Source of the DNA: Pseudoleptotrichia goodfellowii
Lineage (GTDB): Bacteria > Fusobacteriota > Fusobacteriia > Fusobacteriales > Leptotrichiaceae
NCBI RefSeq assembly: GCF_007990505.1
Contig: NZ_AP019822.1
Coordinates: forward strand, 1,612,001 to 1,676,000
Reading direction: 5' to 3'
DNA length: 64,000 nt
The notes under the pieces were generated by a model that worked only from the letters and a program-made list of their open reading frames with translations, did not search any database and was not told the origin of the DNA. The translations under genes and the position numbers were made by a program. This document shows, one piece after another, positions 1 through 6,521 of the stretch (position 1 is the first letter of the stretch; the number at the start of each line of letters is the position of its first letter).

Positions 1-342
1 ATGTTCACTATTATAGATTAAATATTTTTTTTCAATATATTTGTCAATAATCGGAATTACATCACTTATAAAAAATATTGATTCTACTGTCGTTTTTCCA
101 ATATGATAAAAACAGGATCTTATATCTTTTTTATCACACTCCAAAAAATTTTTCAATCTTCTTTTTGCTTTTTCGTCTCTATGATTAAAATTCCCCATAG
201 GAATTGCCCAATAAATATCTGAATTATCTATTTTAAAAAGGCATACTAAAGGTCTTTCTTTAGTATCATTCCATTCCCCTCCGACTTCTTTTATTTTTTG
301 ATAAAACTCCTTTTTAGCAAAATACACCCCATAAATTTTCAT
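1..342 (-). CDS. Type III toxin-antitoxin toxin, ToxN/AbiQ/CptN-like endoribonuclease (3' end beyond window)
   Basis: An open frame starts at ATG 340-342 and runs off the left edge without a stop, so at least 114 residues are present; ToxN-type toxins are usually 150-200 aa. The start has a strong purine-rich ribosome site (AGGGGGG, 5 nt before ATG). The protein begins MKIYGVYFAKKEFYQ and contains RPLVCLFKI, YWAIPMGNFNHR and FYHIGKTTVESIFFISDVIP. The 'AIP' strand followed by an N/H-rich loop resembles the core of this RNase superfamily. The main support is context: a promoter, a 41-nt tandem-repeat RNA and a hairpin directly precede it, the hallmark order of type III systems. These toxins cleave RNA and are held inactive by the repeat RNA. 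The subfamily (ToxN, CptN or TenpN) cannot be decided by eye. Confidence 0.8.
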   Translation of the reverse strand, partial: MKIYGVYFAKKEFYQKIKEVGGEWNDTKERPLVCLFKIDNSDIYWAIPMGNFNHRDEKAKRRLKNFLECDKKDIRSCFYHIGKTTVESIFFISDVIPIIDKYIEKKYLIYNSEH

Positions 343-359
343 ATTCCCCCCTATCAAAT

Positions 360-388
360 ATGGCTTCAAGTACTAAACTCGAAGCCAT
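360..388 (-). terminator. Hairpin between antitoxin RNA repeats and toxin gene
   Basis: An 8-bp perfect stem, ATGGCTTC (360-367) with GAAGCCAT (381-388), can extend inward through AGT/ACT. In transcription order it follows the last repeat and precedes the toxin ribosome site. In type III systems a hairpin here partly terminates transcription, so that more antitoxin RNA than toxin mRNA is made. The following U-tract is poor (ATATTTGATA), fitting leaky termination or an RNA-processing role. Its loop-side sequence recurs behind rpoB. Confidence 0.7.
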
Positions 389-508
389 AATTCAATGTTA
401 TTTCCTACATTGAGAAAGGTATTTGTATCAATTCGGTGTTTTTCCCTACACCGAAAAAGGTATTTGTATCAATTCAATGTTATTTCCTACATTGAGAAAG
501 GTATTTTC
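389..508 (-). ncRNA. Type III antitoxin RNA (ToxI-like), about 2.8 repeats of 41 nt
   Basis: Transcribed right to left from the promoter at 515-543. Three units occupy 471-508 (first), 430-470 (second) and 389-429 (third, cut at its 3' end by the hairpin). Each unit has a stem of CAATGT/ACATTG type around a loop containing GGAAA. In the middle unit both stem arms change together (CGGTGT/ACACCG), so pairing is preserved. The U/C-rich ACCUUUC just before the stem could pair with the GAAA loop, giving the H-type pseudoknot known for ToxI-family antitoxins. The toxin itself is expected to cut the precursor into single units. Confidence 0.78.
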
Positions 509-511
509 TAA
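389..511 (-). repeat. Tandem repeat, 41-nt period, three units
   Basis: On the plus strand each unit begins AATTCAATG or AATTCGGTG and ends AAAGGTATTTGTATC. Units at 389-429 and 471-511 are nearly identical, while 430-470 differs mainly at paired positions. There are no variable spacers, so this is not a CRISPR array. Confidence 0.9.
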
Positions 512-514
512 TGT

Positions 515-543
515 ATTTTACCCTTTTTTTAATTTAAAGTCAA
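515..543 (-). promoter_or_regulatory. Sigma-70 promoter of the type III antitoxin RNA
   Basis: Reading the minus strand, TTGACT (538-543), a 17-nt spacer and TAAAAT (515-520) form a near-consensus promoter. The expected start site is around 508, at the edge of the first repeat. It lies in the gap just downstream of groEL, so the locus has its own promoter. Confidence 0.8.
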
Positions 544-572
544 ATAATTTTTCAAAAACCAATCTTTAGATT

Positions 573-2207
<1,635 letters not shown>

Positions 2208-2234: not shown

Positions 2235-2498
2235 CTATTCAACTGTTCCCAATACGTTATCTATATCCAATATTAAATAAGTATCTTCTCCGTCTTTTAC
2301 TTCCGTTCCGGAATATTTTTCGTAAATTACTTTATCTCCTGCTTTAACATCTTCTACATCTTTACCTACTGCCAAAACTTCTCCTGTAATAGGTTTTTCT
2401 TTAGAAGCCGTTCCCGGCAATACTATCCCGCTTTTTGTAACTTCTTCCTGTTCAACCTGTTTTACTAAAACTCTTTTTCCTAAAGGTTTTATTTTCAT
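2235..2498 (-). CDS. groES: Co-chaperonin GroES (10-kDa subunit)
   Basis: An 87-residue co-chaperonin that caps the GroEL ring. It begins MKIKPLGKRVLVKQ and has the mobile-loop region (SGIVLPGTASKEKP) that contacts GroEL, followed by the typical GKDVEDVKAGDKVIYEKYSGTEV core. Length is slightly below the usual 94-97 aa but complete. It is the first gene of the groES-groEL operon, with an AGGAGG site before the ATG. It is expected to be heat-shock regulated through the HrcA operator upstream. Confidence 0.98.
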   Translation of the reverse strand: MKIKPLGKRVLVKQVEQEEVTKSGIVLPGTASKEKPITGEVLAVGKDVEDVKAGDKVIYEKYSGTEVKDGEDTYLILDIDNVLGTVE

Positions 2499-2532
2499 TA
2501 TTTCATCCTCCTGTTTATTTATATATTTTATT

Positions 2533-2554
2533 AAAGCCTTTAAATTAAGGCTTT
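2533..2554 (-). other. 5'-UTR hairpin before groES
   Basis: AAAGCCTT (2533-2540) pairs with AAGGCTTT (2547-2554) across a 6-nt loop, inside the untranslated leader between the CIRCE element and the groES ribosome site. The following sequence is not a convincing U-tract, so an mRNA stability or temperature-sensing role is as likely as attenuation. Confidence 0.45.
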
Positions 2555-2561
2555 TTAGTTT

Positions 2562-2588
2562 TTAGCACTCATCTCGTTCGATTGCTAA
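2562..2588. promoter_or_regulatory. CIRCE operator (HrcA-binding site)
   Basis: TTAGCACTC, nine bases, then GATTGCTAA. This matches the CIRCE inverted repeat (TTAGCACTC-N9-GAGTGCTAA) with a single mismatch in the second arm. It sits just downstream of the -10 box of the groES promoter, where HrcA binding would block transcription. hrcA itself is not in the window. Confidence 0.93.
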
Positions 2589-2592
2589 CTAT

Positions 2593-2621
2593 ATAATAAT
2601 ATATTTTTTTATTTTTTGCAA
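2593..2621 (-). promoter_or_regulatory. groESL sigma-70 promoter
   Basis: On the minus strand, TTGCAA (2616-2621), a 17-nt spacer and TATTAT (2593-2598) lie immediately upstream of the CIRCE operator. This is the standard vegetative promoter arrangement for HrcA-repressed chaperonin operons. Confidence 0.7.
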
Positions 2622-2632
2622 GTCTTTTTCGA

Positions 2633-3457
2633 TTATTTTTTTAAATTTTTTTCAAGTACTGAATATAACTGGTCTAAACGCCATTTTTCTTCATATTCCA
2701 TATCAGAATTTTCAAAATAGTATTTTTCAATAATCGGCATAAAAATCTCCGCCATTTCTTTGCTGCTTATCCACAAATTTATCTGATTATTAAACTCGGC
2801 ATTTTCCGAAAATGAATTATTATAATAAGTATAATCGCGAGTGTAATAATACATCATTTTCTCAAAATGCTTTAATACACTTATTTTCGTACTTTCACTT
2901 TTCCACATATCAATATCCAATAAATGCTCTGTTTTCAACCCTCCAATATTAAACATCGTAATATAAACAGAAAAATTTTCAATTCTCATCTTTCCTGGAT
3001 CAGTATCGAGTGCATCAATTATAAATTCTTTTGAAAATCGATGCATAAAATCAAGTTCTTTTTCATTCCATACATCTTTTTCAAAATGACATTTATCCAG
3101 AATAAGAGATGTATCAAGCCTTATTTCTGCACGTTTAGTAATGAACTCCAGTATTTTGGGTAAAAAGTGCTTTATCTCCAATCCTGTTTCATCATAATTT
3201 ACCGCATCAAGATACTCCCGTATCAATTCTCTCGACAACTTTCTGACAGGAGTCTCTATGAGCTTTTTTACATTCTCTTCGCTTACACAATAAGAGATAC
3301 AAACCGACAGTTTCCCGTTCAGATCATAAACAAAAAGCCCGTATGCTTCTTCTACAAGTTTTCTGAGCTTTTCATTTACGAATTTCTCATCAATTTCGCC
3401 GCCTATTGCCATTCCTGTATCTTCAGACGGTCTTGTTTTCACTTTAAACTTTTTCAT
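2633..3457 (-). CDS. Hypothetical protein, 274 aa
   Basis: A soluble, acidic/lysine-rich protein of 274 residues with no signal peptide or membrane segment. I do not recognise the family. It is rich in aromatic residues, including a Tyr-rich stretch around residues 208-218 (MMYYYTRDYTYYNN), and looks alpha-helical. It begins MKKFKVKTRPSEDTG after a weak AAGGC ribosome site and ends 12 nt before the groES -35 box region, so it is not part of that operon. Codon use resembles its neighbours. No function is proposed. Confidence 0.75.
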   Translation of the reverse strand: MKKFKVKTRPSEDTGMAIGGEIDEKFVNEKLRKLVEEAYGLFVYDLNGKLSVCISYCVSEENVKKLIETPVRKLSRELIREYLDAVNYDETGLEIKHFLPKILEFITKRAEIRLDTSLILDKCHFEKDVWNEKELDFMHRFSKEFIIDALDTDPGKMRIENFSVYITMFNIGGLKTEHLLDIDMWKSESTKISVLKHFEKMMYYYTRDYTYYNNSFSENAEFNNQINLWISSKEMAEIFMPIIEKYYFENSDMEYEEKWRLDQLYSVLEKNLKK

Positions 3458-3815: not shown

Positions 3816-4895
3816 TTATGCCTCTATTATAATCAATTCCTTATTACTTTTATTCAGAACTTCACGTCCGTCTTTTTTAACAACTACATCATCTTCTATT
3901 CTTACTCCGCCCCAACCGTCAAAGTAAAGACCGGGCTCAGACGTTACTACCATATTTTCCTTAAGTTCTATATGAGAAACACTTGATAAATAAGGCAATT
4001 CATGAATTTCTACTCCTATTCCGTGACCCAATCCGTGCCCAAAATATTCTCCGTAACCTTTTTCAGTAAGGAAATTTCTTACAACTTTGTCCACATCATC
4101 TGACATTATTCCTTCTTTTATTGTATTGATTCCGAGTATTTGAGCTTCCAATACAAGATTATATATTTCTTTATGTCTTTCTGTAATGTTGTTTCCGTAG
4201 TATACCGTTCTTGTCATATCCGAAACATATCCGTTATAATATGCTCCGAAGTCCATTGTAATAAATTCTTCTTTCTGTATTTTCTTATCCGAAGCAACTC
4301 CGTGAGGCATTGCCGATCTTACTCCGCTCGCAAGTATTGTATTGAAGGACTTATCTTCTGCTCCGTTTTTCTTTTGAACGTATTCCATATAAGCGGACAG
4401 CTCTCTTTCGGAAACTCCTTCTTTTATGACTTTTAATGCTTCACTGAATGCTATATCGCTTATTTCTATGGCTTTTTTTATCATTAAAATTTCTTCATCG
4501 GATTTTACCATTCTTTCGTACATTATTTTTTCTCCGACAGGTACTAATTCAGCCTTAAATATTTCTTTCAATTTTTGATATGTTGCAAATGTTACATTAT
4601 TATCTTCAAATCCTATTTTTTTCAATCCCAATTCTTCGGCATGTTCTCCTACATACTTCAAAGAACCTCTTGAAACTTCCTTAAATTCAAATCCCATTTT
4701 TGAAACCTGTGCTTCAGCCTGACTTCTGTATCTGAAATCCGAATAAAAGAAATTTCCTTTTTTTGTAGCAAGAGCAACTCCTGTAGTTCCTGTAAATCCT
4801 GCGAAATATCTTAAGTTATACAAATCCGTAAGAAATATCCCGTCTACATTCAACTCATTCAACAATTTCAATAATTTTTCAGATCTTTTTTCCAT
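3816..4895 (-). CDS. Xaa-Pro dipeptidase/aminopeptidase, M24 family
   Basis: A 359-residue cytoplasmic metallopeptidase that removes residues next to proline. It has an N-terminal creatinase-like domain (about residues 1-130, with LYNLRYFAGFTGTTG) and a C-terminal pita-bread catalytic domain. The dinuclear metal ligands are visible: two Asp in TMDFGAYYNGYVSDMTR, His in HGLGHGIGVEIHE, Glu in TSEPGLY and Glu in RIEDDVV. Length fits the short Xaa-Pro peptidases of Firmicutes and Fusobacteria. It starts 16 nt after the upstream flavoprotein stop and is probably co-transcribed with it. Confidence 0.93.
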   Translation of the reverse strand: MEKRSEKLLKLLNELNVDGIFLTDLYNLRYFAGFTGTTGVALATKKGNFFYSDFRYRSQAEAQVSKMGFEFKEVSRGSLKYVGEHAEELGLKKIGFEDNNVTFATYQKLKEIFKAELVPVGEKIMYERMVKSDEEILMIKKAIEISDIAFSEALKVIKEGVSERELSAYMEYVQKKNGAEDKSFNTILASGVRSAMPHGVASDKKIQKEEFITMDFGAYYNGYVSDMTRTVYYGNNITERHKEIYNLVLEAQILGINTIKEGIMSDDVDKVVRNFLTEKGYGEYFGHGLGHGIGVEIHELPYLSSVSHIELKENMVVTSEPGLYFDGWGGVRIEDDVVVKKDGREVLNKSNKELIIIEA

Positions 4896-4910
4896 AATTT
4901 TTCCTCTTTT

Positions 4911-6521
4911 CTATAGTAATTTATTTTTATAATATTCTATAACAAATTCAGCACATTTTATACCGTCTACTGCAGCGGACATTATCCCCCCCGCATAACC
5001 GGCTCCTTCTCCGCAAGGCATAAGTCCCTCAATATTTGAGAAAAACTTTTCGTTTCTCGGTATTTTCACAGGGGAAGAACTTCTGCTTTCTACAGCCGAC
5101 AAAACCGCATCGTAATTTCCGAAACCTTTTATTTTTTTATCCATTGCCTTTATTCCCTCTTTTAAAGACTCATTTATATAATCGGGAAAACATTCGTTCA
5201 AATCGGCAAATTTATAACCTTTGGCATAACTCGGCTTCACATCTCCAAGCTTTGTCGATACAATTTTTTTCACAAAATCACCGAACAGCTGAACAGGAGC
5301 TTTATAGTTGCTTCCTCCCAACTCAAATGCCTTTTCTTCAAGTTTTCTCTGAAACTCCACTCCTGCGAGAACTCCTCCTTCTCCAAAATCTTCAGGATAG
5401 ACATTTACCAAAATCGCCGAATTGGCATTTTCCATATTTCTTCCCGAATAGCTCATGCCGTTTACTACAAGCCTGTTTTCTTCACTGGCTGCAGGTACTA
5501 CAACTCCCCCCGGGCACATACAGAACGTGTATACTCCTCTTCCGTTACCGGATTTCACACTTAATTTATATTCGGCTGCAGGTAGTCTGTCTGAAAATTT
5601 CCCGTATTGCGAATGATTAATCATAGATTGTTTATGCTCTATTCTCACTCCCACAGAAAATATTTTCCTTTCCATTTTCACATTTTTTTCGTTTAACATA
5701 TAAAACGTATCTCTTGAACTATGTCCTATTGCAAGTACAATAATATCCGTATTTATTTCATAAATCTTATTTTCTTTATCGCTATTTTCCGAAACATCTT
5801 CCACAACAGCCTGAGAAATTCTCTCATTTTCATATTTTATGGAAATAAGCTTATTCTGAAATCTATACTCTCCTCCGAGATTTTCGATTTTTTTTCTTAT
5901 ATTTTTCATTATTCCTATGAGTTTGTCAGTTCCCACATGGGGTTTTGACATGTAAGCTATTTTCTTTTCAGCCCCTGCAAGAATAAATTCTTCGTAAACT
6001 TTCTGCATCCTGAAATTATTTGTATTTGTAGTCAGTTTCCCGTCGGAAAATGTTCCCGCTCCGCCTTCTCCGAACTGAACATTGGAATATTTATCAAACT
6101 TTCCGCCTTTAAAAAAATTATATACATCTTTCTGTCTTTCCTCAACTTTTTTCCCTTGCTCCAGTATAATCGGTTTTAATCCCGCCTCAGCTAAAATAAG
6201 AGCTGTAAAAAGTCCTGACGGTCCGCTTCCAACTACTACAGGTCTATTCCTGTCTTTTAATTCAATTTTTTCGGTAATATACTTCTGCTTTTCAATCTTT
6301 CTTACATTAAGAAGATTTATATATTTTTCTTCGTCATTTACCGTAATATCCACAGAATATACGTATATTATATTATTTTTATTTCTTGCATCTATTGCCT
6401 GCCCTGTTATTTCAAAGGTTTTAAATTCTTCTTCTTTTGTTTTCAATAACTTTGCCGTTATTTTTTTTAAATCCTCTGTATTATGTTTAATCGGCATTTT
6501 TATATTATTTATTCTAAGCAT
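4911..6521 (-). CDS. FAD-dependent dehydrogenase, COG2509-like
   Basis: The frame is open from 6614, but the likely start is ATG 6519-6521 (MLRINNIKMPIKHN, 536 aa). It is preceded by AGAGGG, and the longer form would overlap the upstream gene by 70 nt. The N-terminal about 100 residues form an alpha/beta domain. Next comes the FAD-binding motif VVVGSGPSGLFTALILAEAG and the GEGGAGTFSDGKLTT motif typical of this uncharacterised dehydrogenase family; the C-terminal MPCGEGAGYAGGIMSAAVDG closes the FAD fold. The substrate is unknown. It lies between another flavoprotein and a peptidase in an apparent three-gene operon. Confidence 0.88.
   Translation of the reverse strand: MLRINNIKMPIKHNTEDLKKITAKLLKTKEEEFKTFEITGQAIDARNKNNIIYVYSVDITVNDEEKYINLLNVRKIEKQKYITEKIELKDRNRPVVVGSGPSGLFTALILAEAGLKPIILEQGKKVEERQKDVYNFFKGGKFDKYSNVQFGEGGAGTFSDGKLTTNTNNFRMQKVYEEFILAGAEKKIAYMSKPHVGTDKLIGIMKNIRKKIENLGGEYRFQNKLISIKYENERISQAVVEDVSENSDKENKIYEINTDIIVLAIGHSSRDTFYMLNEKNVKMERKIFSVGVRIEHKQSMINHSQYGKFSDRLPAAEYKLSVKSGNGRGVYTFCMCPGGVVVPAASEENRLVVNGMSYSGRNMENANSAILVNVYPEDFGEGGVLAGVEFQRKLEEKAFELGGSNYKAPVQLFGDFVKKIVSTKLGDVKPSYAKGYKFADLNECFPDYINESLKEGIKAMDKKIKGFGNYDAVLSAVESRSSSPVKIPRNEKFFSNIEGLMPCGEGAGYAGGIMSAAVDGIKCAEFVIEYYKNKLL

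What the first reader, a model, noticed from the sequence alone, without database searches (positions are those of the whole stretch)
1..543. Complete-looking type III (RNA) toxin-antitoxin locus at the left edge
Promoter, about 2.8 copies of a 41-nt repeat, a hairpin and an RNase-like toxin gene occur in exactly the order of ToxIN/CptIN/TenpIN loci. The toxin is cut by the window edge and has no stop codon, so ORF calling misses it. Chromosomal type III loci defend against phage. The 41-nt period and the protein motifs do not let me assign it to a known subfamily, so it may be a new branch.
Basis: partly seen in the sequence, partly recalled or inferred. Interest (0 to 1): 0.88.

Follow-up and report, generated by a model that had tools for sequence, protein, structure and literature searches.

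The report
New CptIN-like RNA toxin-antitoxin branch
The left edge of the window holds a complete bacterial toxin-antitoxin locus in which a short repeated RNA most likely neutralises an RNA-cutting toxin; it is a distinct branch of the known CptIN type III systems, and its RNA is one that the Rfam database lists only as the 'Fusobacteriales-1' cis-regulatory RNA.

Summary
On the minus strand, a promoter (543-515), three ~41-nt units (506-392), a hairpin (389-359) and a toxin ORF (162 aa, intact, ending 146 bases left of the window) lie in type III order. The toxin's closest relative of known structure is CptN of Eubacterium rectale (4RMO), by sequence (E 4.8e-10) and predicted fold (Foldseek E 1e-6), but it scores 57 bits in NCBIfam's CptIN model (cut-off 90). 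With ten relatives it forms a 100/100-supported branch in which the [ST][ST][KRQ] motif of CptN is replaced by G..HR. The array is Rfam RF02920, filed as cis-regulatory. In 496 sampled Fusobacteriota and Bacillota genomes, this RNA and this toxin branch occur in the same four genomes, side by side. A pseudoknot stem missing from the Rfam model is paired in 78 of 78 cells over 26 distinct units, with compensatory changes. In one Fusobacteriales contig the array lies tail-to-tail with the toxin, arguing for action in trans. Two phage contigs carry a unit with no toxin nearby. I call it a new subfamily of the CptIN kind. Toxicity, neutralisation and phage defence are inferred, not tested.

The parts
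515..543 (-). Promoter of the array: TTGACT, 17-nt spacer, TAAAAT
   Evidence: Consensus scan, 10 of 12
392..506 (-). RNA antitoxin array, three units (Rfam RF02920)
   Evidence: 115.5 bits, E 1.8e-15; direct repeats at 41-nt spacing
475..501 (-). Unit 1 pseudoknot core: S1 (CCU x AGG) and S2 (CAAUGU x ACAUUG)
   Evidence: Covariation over 26 distinct units
434..460 (-). Unit 2 pseudoknot core: S1 (CCU x AGG) and S2 (CGGUGU x ACACCG)
   Evidence: Covariation
393..419 (-). Unit 3 pseudoknot core, identical to unit 1
   Evidence: Covariation
359..389 (-). Hairpin between array and toxin gene, 13 bp, weak U tract: presumed leaky terminator
   Evidence: RNA fold; inferred function
1..342 (-). Toxin gene, CptN-like, 162 aa; the last 146 bases lie left of the window (L003:13854-14342 minus)
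   Evidence: ORF; homology; fold

Best explanation
This is a complete type III toxin-antitoxin locus of a distinct subfamily of the CptIN kind. One promoter transcribes three pseudoknot-forming RNA units. The hairpin behind them ends most transcripts, so more antitoxin than toxin mRNA is made. The toxin is a MazF/Kid-fold ribonuclease that most likely cuts its own precursor in the conserved CAAA-containing linkers into ~41-nt pseudoknots, stays bound to them and is held inactive. When the RNA supply falls, free toxin cuts cellular RNA and stops growth. Shown here: gene order, homology and fold, the exclusive pairing of this RNA with this toxin branch, the pseudoknot by covariation, purifying selection. 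Inferred: toxicity, cleavage site, neutralisation, trigger and any phage defence.
For: Architecture. Homology to CptN: NCBIfam E 1.6e-15 over the full length, 4RMO E 4.8e-10, Foldseek best hit 4RMO E 1e-6, profile comparison 99.4%. RNA and toxin branch co-occur in the same 4 of 496 genomes and in a Clostridioides phage and IMG/VR contigs. Pseudoknot stem paired in 78 of 78 cells, 0 of 20,000 shuffles reach this. Tail-to-tail locus in G024 argues for action in trans. dN/dS 0.02-0.27. One branch with 100/100 support.
Against: No experiment. The canonical CptN active-site motif is replaced, so ribonuclease activity is not guaranteed. The AlphaFold model is of medium confidence (pLDDT 72). The U tract behind the hairpin is weak, and the terminator scan did not list the hairpin.
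Confidence: 0.87

Rival explanations
1. RF02920 is a cis-regulatory leader, as Rfam files it: it binds the protein or a ligand and controls read-through into the downstream gene, with no toxin-antitoxin function.
For: Rfam type 'Cis-reg'. In 10 of the 11 toxin loci compared the RNA is directly upstream of the gene with a hairpin between. Autoregulation could coexist with an antitoxin role.
Against: In G024 the array lies behind the toxin gene on the other strand with its own terminator. Repeated near-identical pseudoknots next to a CptN homologue are the known type III plan (PMC5086642).
Confidence: 0.07
2. An ordinary CptIN system, only divergent, with no separate subfamily.
For: Same gene order and fold; CptIN is the best match in NCBIfam and PDB.
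Against: Long branch with 100/100 support; 51-64 bits in all six members scored against 87-164 in four canonical CptN; units of 40-44 nt against 45-47; RF02920 not found at canonical CptN loci. This differs from the main reading only in rank.
Confidence: 0.04
3. The locus is a decayed or catalytically dead relic, or an RNA-protein pair with another role.
For: The catalytic triad reported for CptN is not kept in the aligned stretch.
Against: ORF intact, active-region residues G50, H54, R55, S88 invariant in the branch, purifying selection, pseudoknot kept in all units.
Confidence: 0.02

Closest known systems
CptIN of Eubacterium rectale (PDB 4RMO; NCBIfam NF047359)
   Same: Gene order, MazF/Kid-like fold, homologous toxin, tandem H-type pseudoknot antitoxins
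   Different: Toxin 57 bits against cut-off 90; G..HR in place of the [ST][ST][KRQ] motif; 40-44-nt units instead of 45-47; pseudoknot with L1 of about 4 nt and short L2 instead of 1 nt and a long A-rich L2
Rfam RF02920 Fusobacteriales-1 RNA
   Same: The array is a full-length member (115.5 bits)
   Different: Rfam types it as cis-regulatory and models hairpins only; here it is linked to a CptN-like toxin and has an added pseudoknot stem
ToxIN and TenpIN
   Same: Type III gene order and RNA pseudoknot principle
   Different: Repeat lengths 34-36 and 50 nt (PMC5086642, PMC12373285); no ToxN chain among PDB sequence hits
AbiF/RCd22 of Clostridioides difficile (Rfam RF03085; PMC12373285)
   Same: An Rfam motif upstream of a toxin gene, reported to neutralise the protein by direct binding
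   Different: AbiF is an Abi_2, Cas13-related protein, and the RCd22 motifs are not cut apart

Membership tests
Type III toxin-antitoxin | Tandem repeat array, then hairpin/terminator, then toxin gene, one promoter | tested here: met
   hairpin has a weak U tract
Type III toxin-antitoxin | Toxin homologous to ToxN/CptN/TenpN with MazF/Kid-like fold | tested here: met
Type III toxin-antitoxin | Antitoxin units form H-type pseudoknots | tested here: met
   78 of 78 cells paired, compensatory changes, 0 of 20,000 shuffles; covariation, no structure solved
Type III toxin-antitoxin | RNA neutralises the toxin by direct binding; toxin cuts its precursor | not testable with these tools
   Needs expression and RNA assays
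CptIN | NCBIfam NF047359 score at or above 90 bits | tested here: not met
   57.2 bits; all six branch members scored 51-64
CptIN | Active-site triad [Ser]-[Ser/Thr]-[Arg] (PMC4627078) | tested here: not met
   G[NDK]xxHR at the aligned place in all 11 members; the place of the triad is inferred by alignment
CptIN | 45-nt unit with 1-nt L1 and long A-rich L2 (PMC4627078) | tested here: not met
   40-44-nt units, L1 about 4 nt, short L2
CptIN | Heterotetrameric complex | not testable with these tools
   Needs purification or a structure
Rfam RF02920 | Score above gathering cut-off 52.1 | tested here: met
   115.5 bits

The most novel reading that the evidence does not exclude
The RF02920-linked toxins are a separate type III lineage with a rebuilt, histidine-based ribonuclease site. 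Their antitoxin RNAs work in trans and can be uncoupled from the toxin gene (tail-to-tail in G024), and phages carry stand-alone units as natural decoy antitoxins, comparable to the pseudo-ToxI of phage PhiTE.
Probability: 0.2. Interest if true: 0.68.

Novelty: new variant of a known kind. Interest (0 to 1): 0.52.

Why it matters
It gives a likely function to an Rfam RNA family filed as cis-regulatory, joins Fusobacteriota, Bacillota and phage loci into one testable toxin-antitoxin subfamily, and supplies a type III toxin whose known catalytic residues are replaced. Catalytic mechanism, antitoxin specificity and phage-borne antitoxins become directly testable. It also suggests that phrog_33519 ('unknown function') consists of CptN-type toxins.

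Tried and rejected
Toxin against Pfam and PADLOC: nothing significant. Two papers I looked up by DOI (meant as the source of the RNA motif and the 2012 type III survey) are not held, and neither 'Fusobacteriales-1' nor 'RF02920' occurs in any held paper, so I cannot exclude that an antitoxin role was proposed elsewhere. My first pseudoknot idea (UUUC x GAAA in the loop) was dropped: the register -7..-5 x loop 1-3 is the only one paired in every unit. A transposon-like origin from the CAATCTTTAGATTTTACAT motif at 560-578 was dropped, as no matching inverted end lies near the locus. L016 (Tenericutes MAG) was a false hit, a short match inside an unrelated long ORF. The solo unit in L040 looks like a decayed array (unit before it broken); L035 (one intact unit plus hairpin) stays open. 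Plasmid records hold no relative of the tail-to-tail locus.

Full report
WHAT IS THERE. The window starts inside a gene. The held genome is one contig of 2,290,729 bases and the window is its stretch 1612001-1676000, so I read 14 kb to the left (L003). The toxin ORF is complete: L003:13854-14342 minus, 162 aa, ATG at window 342, last base 146 bases outside the window. Reading in its direction from groEL (573-2198 minus): promoter TTGACT-17-TAAAAT at 543-515, three units at 41-nt spacing, a 13-bp hairpin at 389-359, GGGGGG before the ATG, the toxin, and a terminator-like hairpin after it. Beyond lies a convergent HTH regulator.

THE PROTEIN. NCBIfam's CptIN model matches the whole length at E 1.6e-15 but with 57 bits against a curated cut-off of 90. 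The only PDB chain with a significant sequence match is CptN of Eubacterium rectale, 4RMO (E 4.8e-10 with one sequence, 3e-10 with a profile). An AlphaFold2 model from nine family members (pLDDT 72, pTM 0.69) has 4RMO as its best Foldseek match (E 1e-6, probability 1.0, TM 0.62), followed by MazF proteins. Profile comparison with CptN of other Fusobacteriales and Bacillota gives probability 99.4%.

A DISTINCT BRANCH. Relatives at about 48-65% identity turned up in another Fusobacteriales genome (G024, unnamed), Lysinibacillus fusiformis (G098), another genome of the same phylum (G127), Clostridioides phage pCD1602_4 and several IMG/VR contigs. In a maximum-likelihood tree all 11 members fall on one side of a long branch with 100/100 support and six canonical CptN on the other. 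Six members scored in NCBIfam get 51-64 bits; four canonical ones get 87-164. Where canonical CptN has IP-x-[ST][ST]-[KRQ], the branch has IP[MV]G[NDK]xxHR with a short insertion (3 or 7 residues, depending on the alignment). Gly50, His54 and Arg55 are invariant. The E. rectale paper reports a catalytic triad [Ser]-[Ser/Thr]-[Arg] in CptN (PMC4627078); that it corresponds to this stretch is my inference from the alignment. dN/dS is 0.02-0.27 in the three pairs that could be scored: purifying selection.

THE RNA. The array is Rfam RF02920 'Fusobacteriales-1', typed cis-regulatory. RNA and toxin branch occur together exactly: among 98 Fusobacteriota genomes the RNA is in two and the subfamily toxin in the same two; among 398 genomes of the Lysinibacillus phylum likewise, in G098 and G127. 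These scans use filters that can lose weak matches. Canonical CptN loci (L009, L010, L014, L033) have other repeats of 46-47 nt and no RF02920 match. From 11 loci I took 33 units, 26 of them distinct. Besides the known hairpin (S2), the three bases at -7 to -5 before S2 pair with the first three bases of its loop in every unit: 78 of 78 cells, with three or four standard pair types at each position. None of 20,000 shuffles of partners reaches this, and slid registers give 8-49. Units within an array and in close phages are not independent, but the changes are spread over several lineages. This is an H-type pseudoknot, a hallmark of type III antitoxins, and it is not in the Rfam model as printed. 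L1 is about 4 nt and L2 short, unlike CptI of E. rectale (1 nt and a long A-rich L2; PMC4627078).

TRANS, NOT ONLY CIS. In G024 the array (contig C47:1772-1883, plus) points at the 3' end of the toxin gene (1927-2415, minus), with a terminator-like hairpin between them; the toxin follows a small ORF on its own strand. The contig also carries a MobA-type relaxase gene. An RNA placed like this cannot be a leader of the toxin mRNA. It is a single case from a draft assembly.

SOLO UNITS IN PHAGES. A scan of IMG/VR with the repeat alone found six loci with the toxin and two with none in the stretch fetched (12 kb and 7 kb): L035 (one intact unit followed by a hairpin, behind a small gene; large ORFs that look like head and packaging genes, though Pfam gave no match) and L040 (one intact unit, a broken one before it, beside a terminase gene). 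Phage PhiTE carries pseudo-ToxI repeats that, once expanded, let it escape ToxIN (PMC3475682). L035 could be such a decoy or a remnant; L040 looks like a remnant.

HOW IT MOST LIKELY WORKS. By homology with CptIN, the toxin cuts the precursor in the linkers (CAAA is conserved in most), stays bound to the pseudoknots, and is freed when RNA supply stops. Cleavage site, toxicity, complex shape and trigger are inferred. Phage defence is possible but not shown; CptIN of E. rectale stabilised plasmids but did not stop over 200 coliphages (PMC4627078).

KNOWN OR NEW. Published repeat lengths are 34-36 nt (ToxI), 45 (CptI) and 50 (TenpI) (PMC5086642, PMC12373285); here they are 40-44. The locus meets the architectural and pseudoknot criteria of type III systems and is homologous to CptIN, but three CptIN features tested here are not met: NCBIfam cut-off, active-site motif, RNA loop plan. 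I therefore call it a new variant of a known kind. No held paper mentions RF02920, but the motif's source paper is not held. There is a precedent: the Rfam abiF motif was later reported to be an RNA antitoxin (PMC12373285).

Noticed in passing
L008:1337-1448 (+) and 1492-1980 (-): Tail-to-tail antitoxin array and toxin gene with a terminator-like hairpin between, on a relaxase-bearing contig (G024:C47): an uncoupled type III architecture.
   Followed up: partly
L035:2255-2290 (-); L040:6048-6153 (-): Single RF02920-type units in two phage contigs with no toxin gene in the fetched stretch: decoy antitoxin or remnant.
   Followed up: partly
L023:1-650: In a genome of the same genus (G085), groEL is followed by a CRISPR array (repeat ATTGAATAGAAACATATGATGTATTTAAAT) where this genome has the toxin-antitoxin locus.
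   Followed up: no
L009:1300-2043 and 2309-3080: Two canonical CptIN loci in tandem in G039, each with its own 47-nt repeat array.
   Followed up: no
L014:2771-3852 and 4110-5173: A Fusobacterium polymorphum plasmid carries a CptIN-like locus (toxin annotated hypothetical) directly before an annotated ToxN/AbiQ-family toxin with 37-nt repeats.
   Followed up: no
L004:1090-1200; window 560-578: About 110-bp inverted-repeat element (CAACCTTTAGATTTTACAT ... ATGTAAAATTTAAGGTTG) elsewhere in the genome; one end-like motif sits just behind groEL in the window.
   Followed up: partly
L017:648-850: HEARO RNA (RF02033) on the same IMG/VR contig as the toxin-antitoxin locus.
   Followed up: no
PHROGs family phrog_33519: Listed as unknown function; all ten CptN-type toxins tested match it, so it is probably a type III toxin family.
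   Followed up: yes
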